Positions 915-10,292 of a stretch of DNA of 10,292 nucleotides are shown here, piece after piece (positions within the stretch are counted from its first letter, which is position 1; every line of letters begins with the position of its first letter). The notes beneath the pieces are model-generated. The model worked only from the letters and a program-made list of their open reading frames with translations. It did not search any database and was not told where the DNA came from. This DNA is from Desulfobacterales bacterium (lineage in GTDB: Bacteria > Desulfobacterota > Desulfobacteria > Desulfobacterales > UBA5852), in NCBI GenBank assembly GCA_016735415.1, contig JAERRP010000716.1, positions 1-10,292 of the forward strand, given 5' to 3'. Made by a program: the position numbers and the translations under genes.

Positions 915-943
915 ATATAAACCCAACTTTAGGGTTTTGTTAG
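912..943 (-). promoter_or_regulatory. Putative pstS promoter: two-unit Pho box plus -10
   Basis: On the minus strand CTAACA (938-943) is followed 11 bp later by CTAAAG (927-932), then after a 9-bp gap by TATAAA (912-917), a good -10. Direct hexamer repeats with an 11-bp period standing in for the -35, about 10 bp before the -10, are the known architecture of PhoB/PhoP-activated promoters. The same hexamer is found before pstC and phoU in this window. The predicted start lies near 905, leaving a leader of about 68 bases that contains the hairpin at 883-914. Only two units are clear, so this is the weakest of the three minus-strand boxes. Confidence 0.6.
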
Positions 944-997: not shown

Positions 998-2296
998 CTA
1001 CCAGCGACGCTCGAATTTTTTACGGAGAATGACAGCCGTGGCGTTCATCACGATCAGAAAGGCCAGCAAGACAATGGTTGCCGCTGAAGTCCGCTCGACA
1101 AACGCCCGCTCGGGGCTGTCCGCCCAGAGGAAGATCTGGACCGGCAGAACGGTGGCGGGATCCGTGAGGCCTCCCGGGATATCCACGATAAAGGCCACCA
1201 TGCCGATCATGAGAAGCGGTGCGGACTCCCCCAGGGCCCGGGCCATGCCGATGATCGTTCCGGTCAGAACGCCGGGAAGCGCCAGCGGGAGGACATGATG
1301 GGTTACCATCTGCATCCTGGAAGCGCCGATGCCCAGGGCGGCCTCCCGGATGGACGGCGGGACCGCCTGCAGCGAGGCCCGACTCGCAATGATAATGGTC
1401 GGCAGGGTCATCAACGTTAAAACAAGACCGCCCACCAGGGGCGCCGAGCGTGGCAGACCGAAAAAATTCAGAAAGACCGCCAGTCCCAGAAGACCGAAGA
1501 CGATGGAGGGCACTGCCGCGAGGTTGTTGATATTGACTTCGATCAGATCGGTCCAATGGTTTTTAGGGGCAAATTCTTCCAGATAGACGGCCGAGGCAAT
1601 GCCGATCGGAAACGACAGCACGAGTGTAACCAGAAGGGCGTAAAACGACCCGGCAACGGCGCCGAGAATACCGGCCAGTTCGGGTTCGCGCGAGTCGCCG
1701 GCGGTAAAAAAGGTGCGGTTGAAACGCTTTTCCAATCGATTTTCTTTCTGCAGGCGATCGACCCAGGCCAGCTGAATGTCCTTGATGCGGCGTTGGCTTT
1801 CCGGGACATTCAGGTCGAAATGCCCCTTCATGAGCATGTCGATATCATCGTCGGCCGTCACCCAGACAGGCCGGGTCTGTCCGATCATTCCGGGCGAATC
1901 CAGCACCATCTTCCGAATCTGAAAGGCCGCCCCGCTGCTGACCATACCGTAGAGCATGCGTTTGTCGCGACGTGAAACGACTTCCGGAAACATGCGGCGC
2001 AGTGATTGCTTCACGACGCCGGGGTAATTGGCGGTTGTCAGGGATTCCTGGCTCAAAATGGCCGGATCAAAGAAGATATCCAGCTGGACAAATGTCTGCT
2101 GAAACGCGGAATAGCCTTTGGTGATGATGGTGCCGAACAGAAACGCAAGAAAAAGCAGACTGGCCAGGATGGCGCTGATGCCATACAGGCGAAACCGGCG
2201 TTCCTGGCGGTAGCGCCGGGCCAATCCCGCGTTCACAATGTCGATCGCGCGACGGCTCTGATTCAGGCCATCGGTTCTGGCCGTGGGGTTATTCAT
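998..2296 (-). CDS. pstA: Phosphate ABC transporter permease PstA
   Basis: Inner-membrane permease subunit that forms the phosphate channel with PstC and is driven by the PstB ATPase. It has 432 residues, far longer than the roughly 300 of E. coli PstA: an N-terminal extension with one membrane helix (about 38-60) and a soluble, presumably periplasmic, segment (about 62-205) precede the transport domain. That extension is the layout of PstA proteins with a DUF3333-type N-terminus. The transport domain starts near 213 and carries the EAA coupling loop (REAALGIGAS at 317-326, ending in LP at 336-337) and the PstA signature ARALGESAPLL (352-362). The ATG overlaps the end of pstC by 8 bp (ATGAATAA), so the two are translationally coupled; AGGGAA lies just upstream of the start, inside pstC. 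PstC has its own diagnostic motifs, so confusion between the two permeases is unlikely. Confidence 0.95.
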   Translation of the reverse strand: MNNPTARTDGLNQSRRAIDIVNAGLARRYRQERRFRLYGISAILASLLFLAFLFGTIITKGYSAFQQTFVQLDIFFDPAILSQESLTTANYPGVVKQSLRRMFPEVVSRRDKRMLYGMVSSGAAFQIRKMVLDSPGMIGQTRPVWVTADDDIDMLMKGHFDLNVPESQRRIKDIQLAWVDRLQKENRLEKRFNRTFFTAGDSREPELAGILGAVAGSFYALLVTLVLSFPIGIASAVYLEEFAPKNHWTDLIEVNINNLAAVPSIVFGLLGLAVFLNFFGLPRSAPLVGGLVLTLMTLPTIIIASRASLQAVPPSIREAALGIGASRMQMVTHHVLPLALPGVLTGTIIGMARALGESAPLLMIGMVAFIVDIPGGLTDPATVLPVQIFLWADSPERAFVERTSAATIVLLAFLIVMNATAVILRKKFERRW

Positions 2297-3680
2297 ATTG
2301 TTCCCTGTATTTGCGCACCACGTGGAGAGCGATGACGTTCAGCATCAGCGTGGCGATAAACAGGATCAGACCCAGGGCAAAGGCCGCCAGGGTCTTGGGA
2401 CTGTCGAATTCCTGGTCTCCCACCAGCAGGGTGACGATCTGCACGGTCACCGTGGTGACGGTTTTCAGCGGGTTGGCGGTCAGGTTGGCCGCCAGGCCGG
2501 CGGCCATGACGACGATCATGGTTTCGCCGATGGCGCGGGAGACCGCTAAAAGCACCCCCCCCACAATACCGGGGAGGGCCGCCGGCAATACCACCTGTTT
2601 GATGGTTTCGGAGCGGGTGGCGCCCAGCCCGTAAGCGCCGTCCCGCATGGCCTGGGGCACGGCGTTGATGACATCGTCGGAGAGCGAGGATACAAACGGG
2701 ATGATCATGATGCCCATGACCAGTCCGGCGGCCAGGGCGCTTTCGGACGACACATCCAGACCCAGGCCGATGCCCGTGTCCCGGATGAAAGGGGCAACGG
2801 TCAGGGCAGCGAAAAAACCATAGACCACGGTGGGAATTCCGGCCAGGATCTCCATCAGCGGTTTGGCAACGGCACGGAAACGAGGATGGGCGTATTCGGA
2901 CAGATAGATGGCGGACATCAGGCCGACGGGAACGGCCACCACCATGGCAATGGCCGAAATCATCAGGGTGCCGGCAAAGACCGGCACGGCGCCGAAAGCG
3001 CCCGAGGAGCCCACCTGGTCTTCCCGAATGGCCATCTGGGGGCTCCACTTCAATCCGAACAAAAACTCAGTCAAGGGGATCTTTTCAAAAAACCGGATGG
3101 CCTCAAACAAAACCGACAGCAGAATCCCGATGGTCGTAAAAATCGCGATCGTGGAGCAGGCAATCAAAATCCACTCGATGATACGCTCAACCTGGTTGCG
3201 CGCCCGCAGGGTTGGCGAGATGAAACGCAGGAGCACACAAATGGCGGCCATGGCCGATGCGAGGAGGACGACCGCGAGGGCGGCATTGCTGACGGACTGG
3301 AGTTGTCGCGAGTGATCGGACGAGCTTCGCAGGGTCTGGTCGATATTCCCGGACACGATGTTTCCGCTGACCAGATTCCGGATGTCGTTGACGACCAGGT
3401 TCAGGCGGCCGACCGGCAATTCGCGAATAGGGTCGGGCAGGCCGGCAATGACCAGATGTGTGATGATACCGGATTCGAATACGGACCAGGCGCTGAAAAC
3501 CAGCAGGGCGGGAAGGCCGCACCACAAGGCGGTCAGGAGGCCGTAATAAGCCGGACGCGAATGCAAACGGAGTAAACCGGCCCGATCGCCGGCCACCGCA
3601 AACGCGCGTTTTCTGCCTATAAAATAGGCGCCCGACATCAGCAGCAGAATGGCCGTAAATATAACAAAAGGCGAAAGCAT
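2289..3680 (-). CDS. pstC: Phosphate ABC transporter permease PstC
   Basis: Partner permease of PstA in the inner membrane. From the ATG at 3680 it has 463 residues. An N-terminal part (about 1-190) has hydrophobic helices near 4-20, 46-66, 133-152 and 169-195 around a polar loop, as in the long PstC variants. The ABC permease domain follows, with GAVPVFAGTL (230-239), LSEYAHPRFR (260-269), an EAA-like loop with MRDGAYGLGA (345-354) ending in LPAALPG, and the PstC signature SRAIGETM (381-388). A TTG at 3741-3743 would add 21 residues. I prefer the ATG because the sequence begins as family members usually do (short leader, helix, GRKRA), a purine-rich AAAGAG precedes it by about 9 bases, and the Pho box at 3759-3808 leaves no room for a -10 and leader ahead of the TTG. 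It is the first gene of the pstCA pair. Confidence 0.93.
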   Translation of the reverse strand: MLSPFVIFTAILLLMSGAYFIGRKRAFAVAGDRAGLLRLHSRPAYYGLLTALWCGLPALLVFSAWSVFESGIITHLVIAGLPDPIRELPVGRLNLVVNDIRNLVSGNIVSGNIDQTLRSSSDHSRQLQSVSNAALAVVLLASAMAAICVLLRFISPTLRARNQVERIIEWILIACSTIAIFTTIGILLSVLFEAIRFFEKIPLTEFLFGLKWSPQMAIREDQVGSSGAFGAVPVFAGTLMISAIAMVVAVPVGLMSAIYLSEYAHPRFRAVAKPLMEILAGIPTVVYGFFAALTVAPFIRDTGIGLGLDVSSESALAAGLVMGIMIIPFVSSLSDDVINAVPQAMRDGAYGLGATRSETIKQVVLPAALPGIVGGVLLAVSRAIGETMIVVMAAGLAANLTANPLKTVTTVTVQIVTLLVGDQEFDSPKTLAAFALGLILFIATLMLNVIALHVVRKYREQYE

Positions 3681-3758
3681 TTCAGGAATCTCTTTGATTA
3701 ACGTTTTGAGCAGCGGTTCGAAGCTGCCGCCAGTGCCAGGCAATAGGTAAGGGGGGCG

Positions 3759-4041: not shown

Positions 4042-4713
4042 TCAGCTTAAACGGGGATAATAGGCGGTGTGCCGTACAATTTCGCCTTCGATCAGATAAA
4101 TGACTTCTTCGGCAATGTTGGTGGCGTGATCGCCGATGCGCTCGAGGTGCTTTGAAATCAGGTAAAAATTAATCAAGAAGGCCATCTGGTCGGTATGATG
4201 CTTAATTTCATCGCAGGTGCGCTGGTAAACTTGGCGGTGGATGCCATCCACCTCATCATCCATCGTGACAACCTTGAAAGCCGTGTCGACGTCCATGTTG
4301 ACGAGCGCATCCAGGCTTAATTTCAGCATTTCTTCTACTTCGGACGCCATGGGCTCATAGTCAAAAGCAAAGCTGGAGGGGGTGTCCTTCACCATGGTTT
4401 TAATGCGCTGCGCGATATTGACCGTCTCGTCGGCAATCCGCTCCAAGTCGTTATTGATCTTGATAACGGCAACCAGAAATCGCAGATCGATGGCCACCGG
4501 CTGATGCAGCGCCATGATCTTGAGGCATTCCTCCTCGATTTCTACTTCCATTTCATCGATTTCATAATCCGAGCGGATAATTTTTTGAGCCAGGGCGGCA
4601 TCCTGGTCGGCAATGGCGGTGGCAATGCGTCGCATGCGTTCCTCGACCATTGTCCCGAGCGACAGGATCATTTTCTTGATCTTTTCCAGTTCTTTATGAA
4701 AATGTCTGGCCAT
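4042..4713 (-). CDS. phoU: Phosphate signalling regulator PhoU
   Basis: Cytoplasmic, peripheral-membrane protein that couples the state of the Pst transporter to the PhoR-PhoB two-component system and limits phosphate uptake. Its 223 residues are the usual size and are almost wholly helical. Both PhoU repeats show the metal-binding signature: NDLERIADETVNIAQRI (88-104) and KHLERIGDHATNIAEEV (188-204). Both E/D-rich motifs are complete, so an active protein is expected. The ATG at 4711-4713 has AGAGGA 6-7 bases ahead (4720-4725). It lies upstream of pstC on the same strand but is separated from it by roughly 360 bp with another Pho box, and it is divergent from the PHP-glycosyltransferase gene across a 337-bp shared regulatory region. 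Confidence 0.95.
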   Translation of the reverse strand: MARHFHKELEKIKKMILSLGTMVEERMRRIATAIADQDAALAQKIIRSDYEIDEMEVEIEEECLKIMALHQPVAIDLRFLVAVIKINNDLERIADETVNIAQRIKTMVKDTPSSFAFDYEPMASEVEEMLKLSLDALVNMDVDTAFKVVTMDDEVDGIHRQVYQRTCDEIKHHTDQMAFLINFYLISKHLERIGDHATNIAEEVIYLIEGEIVRHTAYYPRLS

Positions 4714-4833: not shown

Positions 4834-4861
4834 TGTTAGGCACATGTTAGCCGCCTGTTAG
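4834..4861 (-). promoter_or_regulatory. Putative Pho box before phoU (three perfect units)
   Basis: On the minus strand three identical CTAACA hexamers occur at 4856-4861, 4845-4850 and 4834-4839, each 11 bp from the next. TGATAA (4867-4872, plus-strand reading) may be a degenerate fourth. Ten bases past the last unit the minus strand reads TATGAG, a possible -10, which orients the box toward phoU. Perfect tandem hexamers with 5-bp spacers match PhoB/PhoP operator architecture, and the unit recurs before pstC and pstS. This is the clearest of the boxes in the window. Confidence 0.75.
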
Positions 4862-4943
4862 GGTTTTGATAATGGTTCGATTTTTCGAGTATTTTATACT
4901 GAACCCAAGAACGGGGAAGTGCAAGAAGAAAGATTTCGGGTAC

Positions 4944-5050: not shown

Positions 5051-7519
5051 ATGCGTGTTGATTTTCATGTTCATTCCAAGTATTCGAAACGGCCTTCGAC
5101 CTGGGTTTTGAAAAAAATCGGTTGCCCGGAAAGTTTCACGAAGCCGTTGGATATCTACCGCATTGCCCATGCGCGCGGCATGACCCATGTGACCATTTCG
5201 GATCACAACCGTATCGCGGGCGCCCTGGAGATTGCCCACCTGCCGAATACTTTTATCAGTGAAGAGATAACGACTTATTTTCCTGAGGACGGCTGTAAGC
5301 TACACGTGCTGGCCCTGAACATCACCGAGCGTCAGCATGCGGACATTCAGAAGCTGCGCGAAAATGTTTTCGAACTGGTGTCCTATCTTCATACCGGCGG
5401 CGTCGTGCACGTGCTTGCCCATGCTTTTTATGCCGTAAACGATAGGCTGACCCTCGCGCATTTTGAAAAACTCCTGCTTCTGTTCAAGAACTTCGAATTG
5501 AACGGGGCCCGCAACGATATCGCCAACGAAGGCCTGGCGGCGGTGCTGAATGCGTTGAGGCCGGAAACAATTACCGCCCTGAGCGAGCGTCATGGCATTA
5601 TTCCGGTGTTTGCCGAGCCTTGGAAGAAAAACATTATCGGCGGCTCCGACGACCACAGCTCGCTCAATATCGCGCGGACTTACACCGAAATTCCCGGTGC
5701 CCGAACAGTGGCCGAAGGGCTGGACGGCATCAGCCGGGGTCGGAGTGTTGCCGTGCGCCATGGCTCCCAACCACAAACCATGGCGCAGAATTTTTACAGC
5801 ATCGCCTATCAATACTACCGCAATAAATTCAAACTGGAGCGCTTCGAAGGTAAAGATATCCTCCTGCAATTCATGGATCGCTCTTTGCGTTTCACCCAGG
5901 ACAAGCGTTACAGGGAAGAGCGCCGGTTTTTCAACAAGATTCACCTGTTTTTCAATATCCGCAAGCAGACCAAAGCCCGGCCTGAATCCACCAGCCTGAT
6001 CGATCTGCTGCGGCAGGAGACCACCAAACTCCTTCAGGCCGATCAAGGGTTCGTGGTGCCGCAACTGCACGAAAACGATGATAATGTGAACCACCGCGAG
6101 GACCGCTGGTTCGATTTTGTCAACCAGGTTTCCAACAGCACCCTGATCAATTTCGCCAATCATGCCATGAACCACCTCCTGAAGGGCAACGTCTTCAATA
6201 TATTCCACAGCCTGGGCTCGGCCGGTGGGCTCTATGGATTGCTGGCACCCTATTTTATTGCCTATTCCCTGTTTTCCAGGGATCGTCAGTTTACGCGTTC
6301 GGTCTGTCGGCGGTTCAACGCGATCCCTGAAGGTCATGATGGGTTTTGCGACCGGGTGCGGGTGGCGCATTTCACGGATACCTTTTACGACACCAACGGA
6401 GTGGCCATGACCATCCGGCAGCAGATCCGGGTGGCCCTGCGCAATCAAAAACATCTCCAGGTGATCACCTGTACAGAAAACAACCGTGACCAGGAAGGGG
6501 TTAAGGCGTTTAACCCCATCGGGGTTTACGATATGCCCGAATACACGGAGCAGAAGCTTTATTATCCTCCGCTGCTCGAAATGCTTCGCTATTGCTACGA
6601 ACAGAAATTCACTCGGATTCACTCGGCCACCCCTGGGCCCATCGGTCTGGCAGCCCTGGCCATTGCCAAGATCCTCAAGCTGCCTTTCTGCGGCACCTAC
6701 CACACCCAGCTGCCGCAATACGCCCAGTTTATAACCGGCGATGCCGCCATGGAAGAGCTGACCTGGAAATATGTGATCTGGTATTACGACCAGATGGATG
6801 CCATTTATGCCCCCTCCGCCAGCACCCGGCAGGAACTCATCGATCATGGTATCAATCCCGAAAAAGTGCTGCTCTATCCGCGCGGAATCGACATCCAGCG
6901 GTTTGCGCCGCAAAAACGCAATGGCTTTCTGGCCCGGGAATACGGCCTGGAAGATACCTGTGTGCTGCTCTATGTCGGGCGCCTTTCCAAAGAAAAAAAC
7001 CTTGGTCTGCTGGTGGAGGCCTATCTTGTCCTGCGGGGCAAAGTGGACAAGGTCCATCTCGTCATTGTGGGCGACGGTCCCTATCTGGCCGAAATGCAGA
7101 AAGCCCTCGAAGGAATACCCTGCACCTTTACCGGGGTCCTCAAGGGAGATGACCTGGTTTCAGCCTATGCCTCCGCGGATGTGTTCGTTTTTCCGAGTGC
7201 CACGGATACCTTCGGGAACGTGATCCTGGAGGCGCAGGCCTGCGGCCTGCCGGTCATCGTATCGGACCGGGGCGGTCCACGTGAGAATATGCTTCCGGGT
7301 CAAACCGGCCTGATGGTCAAGGCCAACGACCGCGGCCGTTTTATGGCGGCCATGCGTACCCTGGTGGTCGATACGGATCTGCGGCGATCCCTTGGTGCGG
7401 CGGCCCGTCGGTATACGGAAGAGCGGTCCTTTGACACGGCTTTTATCAAGATGTGGGATCTCTACCGATCGATTCCCGACAGCGTAAGCGATCCCTGGCA
7501 CAAAGCCGTCGGATTCTGA
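5051..7519 (+). CDS. PHP-domain phosphoesterase fused to GT4 glycosyltransferase
   Basis: An 822-residue two-domain enzyme. Residues 1 to about 215 are a PHP-type metal-dependent phosphoesterase: DFHVHS (4-9, with H6 and H8), ISDHNR (49-54), EE at 71-72, H85, H120 and H124, and GGSDDHSS (197-204), so the expected metal ligands look intact. Residues about 220-430 match no domain I know and include a hydrophobic stretch (392-408). Residues about 436-800 are a GT-B glycosyltransferase of family GT4: FTDTFYDTNG (441-450) near the acceptor side, YHTQLPQYAQF (550-560), YVGRLSKEKN (641-650) with donor-phosphate-binding Arg/Lys, VGDGP (673-677), and TDTFGNVILEA (718-728), where the EX7E motif reads DX7E (D719, E727). 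The GT half resembles the MgtA/SqdX/Agt type that sugars lipids such as diacylglycerol; the true acceptor is not known. AAGGAA precedes the ATG by 6 bases. It is divergent from phoU, behind a possible Pho box, which fits a role in phosphate stress. Confidence 0.85.
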   Translation: MRVDFHVHSKYSKRPSTWVLKKIGCPESFTKPLDIYRIAHARGMTHVTISDHNRIAGALEIAHLPNTFISEEITTYFPEDGCKLHVLALNITERQHADIQKLRENVFELVSYLHTGGVVHVLAHAFYAVNDRLTLAHFEKLLLLFKNFELNGARNDIANEGLAAVLNALRPETITALSERHGIIPVFAEPWKKNIIGGSDDHSSLNIARTYTEIPGARTVAEGLDGISRGRSVAVRHGSQPQTMAQNFYSIAYQYYRNKFKLERFEGKDILLQFMDRSLRFTQDKRYREERRFFNKIHLFFNIRKQTKARPESTSLIDLLRQETTKLLQADQGFVVPQLHENDDNVNHREDRWFDFVNQVSNSTLINFANHAMNHLLKGNVFNIFHSLGSAGGLYGLLAPYFIAYSLFSRDRQFTRSVCRRFNAIPEGHDGFCDRVRVAHFTDTFYDTNGVAMTIRQQIRVALRNQKHLQVITCTENNRDQEGVKAFNPIGVYDMPEYTEQKLYYPPLLEMLRYCYEQKFTRIHSATPGPIGLAALAIAKILKLPFCGTYHTQLPQYAQFITGDAAMEELTWKYVIWYYDQMDAIYAPSASTRQELIDHGINPEKVLLYPRGIDIQRFAPQKRNGFLAREYGLEDTCVLLYVGRLSKEKNLGLLVEAYLVLRGKVDKVHLVIVGDGPYLAEMQKALEGIPCTFTGVLKGDDLVSAYASADVFVFPSATDTFGNVILEAQACGLPVIVSDRGGPRENMLPGQTGLMVKANDRGRFMAAMRTLVVDTDLRRSLGAAARRYTEERSFDTAFIKMWDLYRSIPDSVSDPWHKAVGF

Positions 7520-7721: not shown

Positions 7722-9098
7722 ATGATACGCATCTGGCAATATCTGCATCAGTTTCGAAAAAACCGGGTTCCCGGGCAGTTGGTCATCCAGATGACCGACC
7801 AGTGCAATGCCCGTTGTCCCCAGTGCGGGATGAATACTTCCCGGCGTTTTGAACGTCATCGGCTTACCCTGGACGCCTTGAAGACCATCATCGACAATGC
7901 CGGCGCACGCAGCATCGAAGCGGTTTCCTTTACGGGAGGCGAACCGCTTCTTCTACTGGACGATCTGGTGACACTGATGGCCCATGCCGGTACGGTCGGC
8001 ATTCCCTTCATTCGAACCGGTACCAACGGTTTCGTTTTCCGCCATGCCGAACGCCCCGATTTCGATGACCGTATGCACCGCCTGGCCGAGAGGCTGGCCG
8101 GTACACCGATGCGCAATTTCTGGATCAGTATTGATTCGGCGGTGCCTGCTACCCATGAAAAAATGAGGGGTTTCCCGGGGGTTATTGCCGGTATCGAACG
8201 GGCCCTCCCAATTTTTCATGCTCACGGCCTCTACCCATCCGCCAATCTGGGAATCAACCGCAATCTTGGCGGTGAAGACAGTATCCCGATACTGCCGCGC
8301 GCTCATGCGGCGGCGCAGGCGGCCGACTTCGCAGGCACCCTGCAACAGGGGCTGCATCAATTTTTCGGCTTCGTTGCCGATCTCGGGTTTACGATTGCCA
8401 ATGTGTGCTACCCCATGAGCCTGGCAGCAGATGGGGGCGGGGAGGATTTGCAGGCTGTATACGGGGCCGCCTCGGTGGACTCGGTCGTATCTTTTGCGAC
8501 CCACGAGAAAGCGTTGCTGTTCGAATCTCTGGCTCGGGTCATCCGGGCTGAACGCTCAAGATTGCGCATTTTCGCGCCTCTGTGCTCGTTGTATGGTTTA
8601 AGAAGGCAATTTGTGAACGGTCGGCGGGGGTATGCCTGCCGCGGCGGCATTGATTTTTTCTTTGTGGATGCCGTTCAGGGGCACACTTTTCCGTGCGGCT
8701 ATCGCGGCCGCGAGGACCTGGGACCTTTCGGTCCTGCGGATCAGGACGCAGGCGCCAACGGGGAGGCCTGTTACCAGTGTGAATGGGAATGCTTTCGCGA
8801 TCCCTCCGAGTTGATCGGCCCGGTCCGCGAACTCCTGCACCATCCTCTGGCGCTGCTGCAGCGCATGTGTCACGATCGCGAATTTTTCCGCTGCTGGTGG
8901 GAAGACATACGCTACTATCGCGCCTGTGATTTTTTTAACGGTCGCAAACCGGCCGATATGCCGGGGCTGCGCGCATTCGCATCCGCCAGAAAGCAAGTCG
9001 GCCTCGACCCGCTGAACAGGTCCCTGAACTCTGTCAAAGGGGTAACAAACGTGGCCAGCGCCGTCAGGGTCCATCAGGCTGTATTTCCAAATGAGTAA
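7722..9098 (+). CDS. Radical SAM protein with C-terminal cysteine cluster, function unknown
   Basis: A 458-residue radical SAM enzyme. The SAM-binding [4Fe-4S] cluster motif CX3CX2C is C28, C32 and C35 (DQCNARCPQCGM), and the glycine motif FTGGEP is at 70-75; the strand motif WISIDSA (134-140) completes the usual barrel features. A second Cys set follows: C288, C306, C325, C350, C353 and C357, the last three in CYQCEWEC. This resembles a SPASM/twitch-type auxiliary cluster domain, in which extra iron-sulfur clusters hold a substrate or relay electrons; three more Cys (383, 391, 402) come later. There are no membrane helices, so it is cytosolic. It follows the PHP-GT gene by 202 bp on the same strand and may share its transcript. 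I do not recognise a named family; peptide modification or lipid/cofactor chemistry are both possible. The radical SAM assignment itself is firm. Confidence 0.88.
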   Translation: MIRIWQYLHQFRKNRVPGQLVIQMTDQCNARCPQCGMNTSRRFERHRLTLDALKTIIDNAGARSIEAVSFTGGEPLLLLDDLVTLMAHAGTVGIPFIRTGTNGFVFRHAERPDFDDRMHRLAERLAGTPMRNFWISIDSAVPATHEKMRGFPGVIAGIERALPIFHAHGLYPSANLGINRNLGGEDSIPILPRAHAAAQAADFAGTLQQGLHQFFGFVADLGFTIANVCYPMSLAADGGGEDLQAVYGAASVDSVVSFATHEKALLFESLARVIRAERSRLRIFAPLCSLYGLRRQFVNGRRGYACRGGIDFFFVDAVQGHTFPCGYRGREDLGPFGPADQDAGANGEACYQCEWECFRDPSELIGPVRELLHHPLALLQRMCHDREFFRCWWEDIRYYRACDFFNGRKPADMPGLRAFASARKQVGLDPLNRSLNSVKGVTNVASAVRVHQAVFPNE

Positions 9099-9610: not shown

Positions 9611-10292
9611 CTAAATGCGATGATGGTGGACATGGAATTCTATGGTTGAACCGGTGACTTTACTTTTACCGGTGTAGATGAAAGCGGCCAGCCAGAGCGC
9701 CTGGATGAAAAGCAGCATGAAGGGGTGCCAGAAGACTTTCAGTCCGGCAACGATCTGAACGGTGACCGGCGGCTGAGCCGTCGGCAGTCCGATGGCGATC
9801 AACCCACCATAGGCCACCGCGCCGAGGCTCATGTACTGATAGACACTGATGCGTCCTCGGCCGCGGTAGTCCGCCCGCAGGAATTCGGAGATGAAACGCC
9901 AGAGCTGGCTGATGGTCAGGGAGAGAGTAAAGGCTGTAGTGAAATAGCCTTTAAGATAAAGGTAGAGACCGGCCAGCGCCGTCAGGCATAATAAAACCGC
10001 GGTGAGGGCCTGGATCGGGACTACCGGCACTTCGTCCAGATGATCGGCATAAGCGATTTTTCGTGTCTGGCCGAAGAAAATGAAATGCCAGTGCCGGAAG
10101 CATTTCTGCAGCAGCAGGGGAGCCTCCGACAACGGTTTACCATAGCAGCAGCCGAAGCTGATACAGGCCAGGCGGCCGATGCCCTCGCCCCAACAGTAGG
10201 CGATGGAGACGGCGGCCAGATAGATCATAATAGGCAGCGACAGGCCCCAGACTCTATAGACGACGGGATGCAGGGCCAGTAGCAGGGGTGGC
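9611..10292 (-). CDS. Divergent Lgt-like (prolipoprotein diacylglyceryl transferase family) membrane protein, 5' end cut by window
   Basis: A membrane protein whose frame stays open to the right edge (226 residues visible); the ATG at 10226-10228 is internal, because the residues before it continue the same hydrophobic style. Lgt family members move diacylglycerol from phosphatidylglycerol to a lipoprotein cysteine in the inner membrane. Seen here are the Lgt-type signature GRLACISFGCCYGKP (with its Arg) and a later EFLRADYRGRG...SVYQYMSL block similar to the family's FLRGD.RG region, with four to five hydrophobic helices. Two features differ: a polar insert of about 35 residues after CCYGKP, and VPIQALT where Lgt usually has HPTQLYE. 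The C-terminus ends in HVHHHRI. The N-terminal third, including the family's HGG region, is outside the window. It may be an Lgt paralogue with another acceptor rather than the housekeeping enzyme; it is convergent with the radical SAM and mini-protein genes. Confidence 0.75.
   Translation of the reverse strand, partial: PPLLLALHPVVYRVWGLSLPIMIYLAAVSIAYCWGEGIGRLACISFGCCYGKPLSEAPLLLQKCFRHWHFIFFGQTRKIAYADHLDEVPVVPIQALTAVLLCLTALAGLYLYLKGYFTTAFTLSLTISQLWRFISEFLRADYRGRGRISVYQYMSLGAVAYGGLIAIGLPTAQPPVTVQIVAGLKVFWHPFMLLFIQALWLAAFIYTGKSKVTGSTIEFHVHHHRI

What the first reader, a model, noticed from the sequence alone, without database searches (positions are those of the whole stretch)
5051..7519. One-chain phosphoesterase plus glycosyltransferase next to the Pho regulon
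The PHP metal motifs and the GT4 donor motifs both look intact in one 822-residue protein divergent from phoU. In Agrobacterium a phospholipase C (PlcP) and a glycosyltransferase (Agt) act together in phosphate-starvation lipid remodelling: one removes the phosphate head group, the other adds sugar to diacylglycerol. A fused phosphoesterase-glycosyltransferase could do both steps, or the PHP part could hydrolyse a phosphorylated sugar donor or product. The lipid link is inference; PHP domains also act on nucleotides and sugar phosphates.
Basis: partly seen in the sequence, partly recalled or inferred. Interest (0 to 1): 0.7.

Follow-up and report, generated by a model that had tools for sequence, protein, structure and literature searches.

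The report
Phosphate-starvation glycolipid enzyme, two domains
This gene makes a single protein that very likely swaps phosphate-containing membrane fats for sugar-containing ones when phosphate runs out in sulfate-reducing bacteria, with a fused phosphate-cleaving half whose exact job still has to be tested.

Summary
Window 5051-7519 encodes one 822-residue chain: a PHP-fold metal phosphoesterase (1-234), a helical region and a GT-B glycosyltransferase (437-808). The GT half groups with Agt-type diacylglycerol glycosyltransferases. A PhoB-box-like array of 11-bp repeats lies between phoU and the gene; 11/22-bp spacing recurs upstream of orthologues. Recurrent neighbours include pst/phoU, ornithine-lipid synthase (OlsF) and PS decarboxylase; other GT4 genes are rare there. 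Oleidesulfovibrio alaskensis carries an 816-aa orthologue; in that species a mutant of the 'Agt homolog' Dde_3613 lacks all phosphate-starvation glycolipids (PMC5193443). Dde_3613 is probably this fusion, though I could not map the tag. New here: a strong match to PlcP, the usual phospholipase C partner, is in 0 of 42 sampled fusion genomes but 3 of 5 with stand-alone Agt only; and one clade of six loci has lost the GT donor lobe and catalytic residues yet keeps all eight main PHP ligands. So the PHP half seems to have a selected function of its own, most simply as PlcP substitute. Its substrate is untested. The GT function is known; the PHP role is the open part.

The parts
5051..7519 (+). 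PHP-GT4 fusion gene, 822 aa
5051..5752 (+). PHP metal-dependent phosphoesterase domain, aa 1-234; ligands H6 H8 H52 E72 H85 H124 D200 H202
5753..6358 (+). helical middle region, aa 235-436, with two long helices (343-378, 381-421); least conserved part; no clear transmembrane segment (19-aa hydropathy maximum 1.18)
6359..7474 (+). GT-B glycosyltransferase of the Agt/GTcp clade, aa 437-808: G529/G532, H551, R611, GRLSKEKN (643-650), FPSATDTFG (714-722), E727, W802
   Evidence: residue list from PMC8231724
4834..4872 (+). PhoB-box-like array: three TGTTAG half-sites plus a degenerate fourth at 11-bp period, between phoU and the fusion gene; conserved in L001
3759..3775 (+). same repeat, 1 mismatch, in the gap upstream of pstC
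927..943 (+). same repeat, 2 mismatches, in the gap upstream of pstS
4042..4713 (-). phoU (TIGR02135, 204.5 bits)
2289..3743 (-). pstC (TIGR02138), with about 185 extra N-terminal residues
998..2296 (-). pstA (TIGR00974), with about 190 extra N-terminal residues
1..837 (-). pstS, cut by the window end (TIGR02136 family, below its cut-off)
7722..9098 (+). radical SAM protein, recurrent partner: relatives in 26 of 80 loci, 4 of 34 Desulfovibrionaceae loci and the window, within 400 bp of the fusion gene in 26 of these 31

Best explanation
A phosphate-starvation glycolipid synthase in which both steps of the PlcP-Agt pathway are carried on one chain. Under low phosphate PhoB induces the gene from the 11-bp repeat array. 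The GT half transfers glucose or glucuronic acid from a UDP-sugar to diacylglycerol, giving MGDG and GADG. The PHP half is a metal-dependent phosphoesterase that supplies the diacylglycerol and frees phosphate, either by cutting the phospho-head group off a phospholipid (phospholipase-C-like) or by dephosphorylating phosphatidate, replacing PlcP, of which the fusion genomes sampled show no strong match. Shown here: architecture, intact ligands, Agt clade, repeats, neighbourhood, PlcP absence in the sample, the GT-dead clade. Published: glycolipid loss in a Dde_3613 mutant. Inferred: Dde_3613 is the O. alaskensis orthologue (about 0.9); GT acceptor is diacylglycerol (about 0.9); regulation by PhoB (about 0.85); PHP acts on a lipid phosphate (about 0.55).
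For: GT half groups with three Agt-type stand-alone enzymes, support 96/91, apart from 10 other GT4s of fusion-bearing genomes; the two best-listed stand-alone hits in the plasmid collection are a P. aeruginosa GT beside plcR and a phospholipase C gene and a Sphingomonas GT beside an LpxH/PlcP-like gene. The residues that GTcp needs are present in the window protein, except Thr162 (Pro610). Repeat array: 5 matches against 0.23 expected, all in three Pho-gene gaps; GTTA, TTAG and TTAA pairs peak at 11 and 22 bp upstream of orthologues; period-11 motif model LLR 159.6 against 55.5-96.0 for periods 9, 10, 12 and 13. OlsF in 16 of 80 loci (about 0.3 expected for one copy per 4 Mb), PSD in 14 of 80. 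O. alaskensis has the full fusion, 816 aa; mutant phenotype. Stand-alone Agt, sought with one Sphingomonas query at E 1e-42, is in only 2 of 288 genomes of the family against 110 of 288 for the fusion. Strong PlcP 0 of 42 fusion genomes, 3 of 5 Agt-only (Fisher p 6e-4). GT-dead clade with all eight PHP ligands in 6 of 6.
Against: No PHP enzyme that cuts phospholipids is known to me (recall); the nearest solved PHP folds act on nucleotides, nucleic acids or small phosphates, as far as their titles and my recall tell. One ligand position is mostly not Asp (9 of 71). One relative (L074) lost three PHP ligands yet keeps the GT residues, and L068 lost one. The P. aeruginosa GT that groups with the fusions has Glu, not Asp, at the catalytic position (FPSLSETFG), and the Rhizobium GT in that group lies beside no PlcP. 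The fusion and stand-alone Agt are not mutually exclusive: 2 of 7 Agt genomes also hold the fusion, 0.94 expected. One fusion genome (G537) has a weak PlcP-like match, E 4.8e-17, and the PlcP test used one query, genomes of untold completeness and only 5 Agt-only genomes. Dde_3613 was not mapped to the orthologue by sequence. Recurrent neighbours also include genes without a lipid link, such as P-type ATPases (11 of 80). In Desulfovibrionaceae the lipid neighbours are scarce (OlsF 3, PSD 0 of 34). In one of two train/test splits the repeat model settled on another optimum.
Confidence: 0.62

Rival explanations
1. The GT half is a diacylglycerol glycosyltransferase as above, but the PHP half acts on a by-product or donor: it hydrolyses UDP/UMP or a sugar phosphate, pulling the transfer forward and recovering phosphate, or trims a nucleotide signal.
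For: Closest PHP folds include nucleotide and nucleic acid phosphoesterases (RNase AM, the 2yb1 protein with bound AMP).
Against: A clade that lost the GT donor lobe and catalytic residues keeps the PHP site, so the PHP half is not merely servicing its own GT; no strong PlcP was found in fusion genomes, which leaves the diacylglycerol source unexplained.
Confidence: 0.22
2. The PHP domain is structural or regulatory and its chemistry is not needed; diacylglycerol comes from lipid recycling or another phosphatase (for example a PAP2 protein).
For: L074 has lost three ligands; PAP2-family genes follow the GT-dead form in L056 and L062; P. aeruginosa plcP mutants still make a little GADG (PMC8528852 passage).
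Against: Ligands are near invariant across many phyla and PHP is the most conserved part (mean top-residue fraction 0.636 against 0.551 for the GT half); PHP outlived its GT in one clade.
Confidence: 0.1
3. A cell-surface polysaccharide or LPS glycosyltransferase with a phosphatase that trims its product; the Pho location is a coincidence.
For: Some sources name family members 'glycosyltransferase involved in cell wall biosynthesis'; 6 of 80 loci hold a PF13528-type GT.
Against: Only 2 of 80 loci hold any other GT4-like gene; recurrent neighbours include phosphate and lipid genes; Agt-clade placement; repeat array.
Confidence: 0.05

Closest known systems
PlcP-Agt lipid-remodelling pathway (Agrobacterium, Pseudomonas, SAR11, methanotrophs)
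   Same: Agt-clade GT4, phosphate-starvation repeats upstream, OlsF-type lipid genes often nearby; the expected products MGDG and GADG are published for the likely orthologue
   Different: the phosphoesterase is PHP, not PlcP (described as a metallophosphoesterase; calcineurin-like is recalled), and is fused to the GT; no strong PlcP in the 42 fusion genomes sampled
Dde_3613 'Agt homolog' of Desulfovibrio (Oleidesulfovibrio) alaskensis G20 (PMC5193443)
   Same: very probably the orthologue: the species encodes an 816-aa fusion; the mutant lacks all glycolipids at low phosphate
   Different: the paper's main text has no occurrence of PHP, phosphoesterase or PlcP; the tag was not mapped here
GTcp of Candidatus Pelagibacter HTCC7211 (PMC8231724)
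   Same: GRxxxEKN, FPSxTDTFG, catalytic His/Asp dyad, DAG-site Arg and Trp
   Different: 334-aa stand-alone enzyme without PHP or helical region; Thr162 is Pro here
PHP phosphoesterases (RNase AM 7ug9, 2yb1, 3o0f, 3e38, PsfC 7rty)
   Same: fold and most metal ligands
   Different: 14-22% identity to these five; one metal-ligand position mostly replaced; fused to a GT; substrate unknown

Membership tests
Agt/GTcp clade of GT4 | UDP-sugar motifs GRVAxEKN and FPSxTDTFG | tested here: met
   GRLSKEKN and FPSATDTFG in the window protein; GRISREKN and FPSGTDTFG in P0276; motif source PMC8231724
Agt/GTcp clade of GT4 | catalytic His with Asp in place of the usual GT4 Glu; DAG-site Arg and Trp | tested here: met
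   all four in the window protein; H551 in 68 of 73 rows, D719 in 65 of 66 rows with a letter, R611 in 62 of 73 rows, W802 in only 49 of 73 rows; residue-to-residue mapping by spacing is mine
Agt/GTcp clade of GT4 | groups with Agt-type enzymes apart from other GT4 | tested here: met
   96/91 support, 15 fusions + 3 Agt-type against 10 other GT4. The Agt label of the three: L130 by its PlcP-like neighbour, L129 by gene position and recall (it has Glu, not Asp), L131 by motifs only
Agt/GTcp clade of GT4 | diacylglycerol glycosyltransferase activity | not testable with these tools
   needs enzyme assay; mutant phenotype published for the likely orthologue
PHP superfamily | PHP (distorted TIM barrel) fold | tested here: met
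PHP superfamily | metal ligands HxH, H, E, H, H, DxH | tested here: met
   exceptions L068 and L074
PHP superfamily | Asp after motif I (further metal ligand in many PHP enzymes; recalled) | tested here: inconclusive
   K13 in the window; Asp in 9 of 71; not required in all PHP enzymes as far as I recall
PHP superfamily | activity on a phosphate ester | not testable with these tools
   -
NCBIfam CehA/McbA metallohydrolase | score over the curated cut-off (80 bits) | tested here: not met
   33.3 bits
PlcP phospholipase C | PlcP sequence homology | tested here: not met
   the PlcP-like protein of L130 gave no blastp hit at E 1 to the window protein or P0276
PlcP-Agt pathway (works like) | control by phosphate through a Pho box | tested here: met
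   sequence evidence only, and not with the E. coli letters:

The most novel reading that the evidence does not exclude
The PHP half founds a new kind of bacterial phospholipase C or phosphatidate phosphatase: the missing diacylglycerol-making enzyme of phosphate-starved sulfate reducers and several other phyla, unrelated to PlcP, fused to its glycosyltransferase so that diacylglycerol passes from one site to the other, and in one clade of sulfate-reducer relatives kept alone, with a dead GT remnant, to work with OlsF and separate phosphatase and GT genes.
Probability: 0.48. Interest if true: 0.75.

Novelty: new variant of a known kind. Interest (0 to 1): 0.62.

Why it matters
Phosphorus-free membranes explain how anaerobes live where phosphate is scarce, and the glycolipids are read as signs of phosphate limitation in the environment (PMC5193443, section 19). 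In the parts of the D. alaskensis study that I read, the step that frees diacylglycerol from phospholipid has no candidate. If the PHP half does it, a large and widely spread enzyme family gets a function, an unrelated fold is added to the PlcP role, and a one-protein lipid-remodelling system becomes testable with a few point mutations.

Tried and rejected
Polysaccharide/LPS role: judged unlikely on neighbourhood. E. coli-type Pho box (CTGTCATN4CTGTCAT) in 111 upstream regions: no clear excess over shuffles; the repeats of this group are TGTTAG/GTTAA-like. Of six words tried for spacing, TGTC and TTAC show little and GTCA also peaks at 21 bp. Motif held-out test: one split gave 32% of held-out upstream regions against 0% of CDS controls, the other settled on another optimum (11% against 1%). 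Mutual exclusion of fusion and stand-alone Agt: not supported (2 of 7, 0.94 expected). PlcP beside the fusion: none in 115 loci at E 1e-15. Solved-structure search by sequence found no PHP relative. Viral fold library not searched. Papers: PMC5193443 read as abstract, passages and sections 18, 19, 21; PMC8528852, PMC9239053, PMC8231724 passages only; PMC4796936 a word search that returned nothing; all other papers only as search listings.
Full report

IS THE SITE INTACT. In an alignment of 73 rows (the window and 72 of the 80 genome loci; 8 loci gave no row with my ORF caller) the PHP ligands H6, H8, H52, E72, H85, H124, D200 and H202 are kept in 70/71, 70/71, 71/71, 71/71, 71/72, 73/73, 73/73 and 72/73 rows with a letter. 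The 8 missing loci keep all eight. PHP is the most conserved part: mean top-residue fraction 0.636 against 0.399 in the middle and 0.551 in the GT half. Against this: one further ligand position of many PHP enzymes (recalled) is K13 here and Asp in only 9 of 71 rows; L068 lacks H6 and L074 (Verrucomicrobia) lacks three ligands while keeping its GT residues.

HOW COMMON. One search gave 2320 proteins at E 1e-3 among the 7997 candidates scored; the best 120, all that were listed, cover 91-100% of the query. Of 170 confirmed genome stretches the best 80 were kept: mostly Desulfobacterota, with Nitrospirota, Planctomycetota, Verrucomicrobiota, Lentisphaerota, Kiritimatiellota, Spirochaetota and others by record title. 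A match at E 1e-150 is in 110 of 288 genomes of the family of the L016 Desulfovibrio sp., which I take for Desulfovibrionaceae, and at E 1e-100 in 40 of 297 genomes of the phylum of Desulfosarcina alkanivorans. A few of these are contig fragments or frame-broken copies. It is old and widespread, not a window oddity.

THE GT HALF IS AGT-LIKE. PMC8231724 (passages) lists for GTcp and its homologues, Agt included, the motifs GRVAxEKN and FPSxTDTFG, a catalytic His/Asp dyad and a set of essential residues. The window protein has GRLSKEKN, FPSATDTFG, H551 and D719 at matching spacing, and the listed Gly, Arg, Lys, Thr, Phe, Glu and Trp positions; Thr162 is Pro610 (the mapping is mine). In the plasmid collection (72,556 records, 1392 with a match, 40 listed) the two highest-ranked and highest-scoring listed matches to the GT half are a P. 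aeruginosa GT next to plcR and a phosphocholine-specific phospholipase C gene, 149 bits (from gene order I take it for PA0842/Agt2, the numbers of the phospholipase genes being recalled) and a Sphingomonas GT directly behind a gene annotated UDP-2,3-diacylglucosamine diphosphatase, the annotation I expect for PlcP, 117 bits. In a maximum-likelihood tree of 28 rows, 15 of the 49 fusion rows and 3 Agt-type enzymes form one group (96/91) apart from 10 other GT4 proteins of fusion-bearing genomes. Caveats: seven of those ten are long branches; the P. aeruginosa protein has Glu at the catalytic Asp; the third Agt-type row, from Rhizobium, has the motifs but no PlcP neighbour.

REGULATION. Between phoU and the fusion gene lie three TGTTAG words at exact 11-bp spacing plus a degenerate fourth (4834-4872). 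The array is conserved in L001, in an intergenic region that is otherwise much diverged. The pattern TGTTAGN5TGTTAG with up to 2 mismatches occurs 5 times in the window against 0.23 expected, and all 5 lie in the gaps upstream of pstS, pstC and phoU/fusion, which make up 7.7% of the window; three of the five are the array that suggested the pattern, so the independent evidence is the other two. In 108 upstream regions, window included (111 found, 3 near-duplicates dropped), GTTA pairs occur at 11 bp in 9 loci and at 22 bp in 10, and at any other spacing from 7 to 26 bp in 0-2; TTAG and TTAA also peak at 11 and 22, with more background for TTAA; TGTC and TTAC show little. A three-half-site model has LLR 159.6 at period 11 against 96.0, 82.4, 70.3 and 55.5 at periods 9, 10, 12 and 13 over 107 regions; 34 of 107 exceed the 99% shuffle level (training data included). 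The held-out test worked in one split (32% against 0% in CDS) and not in the other, which settled on another motif (11% against 1%). An 11-bp direct repeat is how PhoB boxes are built (consensus CTGTCATN4CTGTCAT quoted in PMC8528852), though the E. coli letters themselves are not enriched.

NEIGHBOURS. Of the 80 loci (mean 15.5 kb), 26 hold a relative of the window's radical SAM gene, 16 an OlsF-like acyltransferase-GNAT protein, 14 a phosphatidylserine decarboxylase homologue (13 within 400 bp upstream on the same strand), 14 any of pstS/pstC/pstA/phoU, 5 an alkaline phosphatase, and 38 at least one of those phosphate or lipid genes, a second PSD query included (Pfam names). About 0.3 loci with OlsF are expected for one copy per 4 Mb. 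P-type ATPases (11 of 80) recur too. In 34 Desulfovibrionaceae loci the counts are lower: OlsF 3, pst/phoU 5, PSD 0. In two of these genomes the fusion and olsF are next to each other. Only 2 of 80 and 2 of 34 loci hold another GT4-like gene; 6 of 80 hold a PF13528-type GT. This goes against polysaccharide clusters, although GT2 and other polysaccharide families were not searched for one by one.

LINK TO A PUBLISHED PHENOTYPE. PMC5193443 (abstract, passages and sections 18, 19, 21) reports that a Dde_3613 mutant of D. alaskensis G20, called an Agt homolog, lacks any glycolipids at low phosphate, and that more than 50 other delta-proteobacterial genomes have homologues at E below 1e-100. One search returned P0276, named glycosyltransferase [Oleidesulfovibrio alaskensis], 816 aa, a full PHP-GT4 fusion (sequence). 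Stand-alone Agt, sought with the Sphingomonas protein at E 1e-42, is rare: 2 of 288 in the family and 7 of 297 in the phylum, against 110 of 288 and 40 of 297 for the fusion. So Dde_3613 is very probably the fusion; the locus tag itself was not mapped, and I did not find G20 among the genomes I could search. The paper's main text has no occurrence of PHP, phosphoesterase or PlcP. In seven further library searches (seen as capped listings) I found no paper that describes the fusion; subscription papers and preprints are not held.

DOES PHP STAND IN FOR PLCP. I searched 47 genomes for PlcP with one query, the PlcP-like neighbour in L130: the 40 fusion genomes, the 5 Agt-only genomes, and G036 and G053, which hold both. 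A strong PlcP (E below 1e-70) is in 3 of 5 Agt-only genomes and 0 of 42 fusion genomes (one weak match, E 4.8e-17, in G537); Fisher p 6e-4. Completeness of these genomes is not told, so some absences may be gaps. No PlcP lies beside the fusion in 115 loci. Fusion and stand-alone Agt do not exclude each other (2 of 7 shared, 0.94 expected), so the part that the fusion seems to replace is PlcP. In G036 a stand-alone Agt lies 3.4 kb from the fusion.

A NATURAL SEPARATION OF THE TWO HALVES. Six loci (L056, L062, L065, L066, L073, L076; titles Desulfobacterales, L065 Deltaproteobacteria) keep all eight PHP ligands but match the GT only to about residue 611; the donor lobe is absent from the whole fetched locus in the five whose contig continues (L076 ends at its contig edge). 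H551 is Ser or Thr in the five rows that reach it, and R611 Ala or Gln in the four that reach it. They are one clade (100/100) beside the group of the window, L001 and L015. PHP identity to the window is 60-62% while the remaining GT lobe falls 3.5-3.9 residual SD below the trend of 67 intact relatives (five rows, without L073). The six genomes show no other Agt-like GT (best other match 83.7 bits; the Agt types score 117 and 149). Neighbours are OlsF (five of six), a PAP2-superfamily phosphatase in L056 and L062, and a separate PF13528 glycosyltransferase in L056, L065, L066 and L073. The PHP half thus appears to have a selected function that does not need its own GT.

MECHANISM AND LIMITS. 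The simplest reading is a PlcP substitute: PHP chemistry supplies diacylglycerol and frees phosphate, the GT half caps it with sugar. Whether it acts as a phospholipase C or as a phosphatidate phosphatase, or on a nucleotide by-product, cannot be told from sequence. I hold the lipid/phosphate-starvation role at about 0.85-0.9 and the PHP-as-diacylglycerol-source step at about 0.55.

Noticed in passing
window 7722-9098 +: Radical SAM protein with a Cys-rich C-terminal part, the most frequent partner of the fusion (26 of 80 loci); of the families shown none reaches its cut-off. A lipid-modifying role is possible but untested.
   Followed up: partly
window 9611-10291 -: Lgt-like (PF01790) membrane protein, cut by the window end; relatives near the fusion in 7 of 80 loci. 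Lgt normally takes diacylglyceryl from phosphatidylglycerol (recalled), so it may belong to the same lipid theme.
   Followed up: no
window 998-3743 -: PstC and PstA both carry about 185-190 residues before the permease domain, and the order is phoU-pstC-pstA-pstS.
   Followed up: no
L056, L062, L065, L066, L073, L076: PHP kept, GT donor lobe lost; neighbours OlsF, PAP2, PF13528 GT and a PPDK_N/PEP-utiliser protein.
   Followed up: yes
   Followed up: partly
L117 8440-11319 +: Fusion with an insertion of about 100 residues between the two GT lobes.
   Followed up: no
L074 3417-5795 +: Verrucomicrobial fusion with three PHP ligands changed to Tyr and GT residues intact.
   Followed up: no
G024 C2 1913853-1915244 and 2008666-2010057: Two PstC genes with the same score (69% to the window's) in opposite orientation, about 93 kb apart in one genome.
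   Followed up: no
loci such as L021 and L023: Phosphatidylserine decarboxylase-like gene directly upstream of the fusion (13 loci), often with a Methyltransf_24 gene before it; a plsC-like acyltransferase in 3 loci.
   Followed up: partly
L061 10001-12405: In the Desulfosarcina cetonica record the stretch reads with five stops in the frame of the PHP half, so the copy is frame-broken or carries a sequencing error.
   Followed up: no
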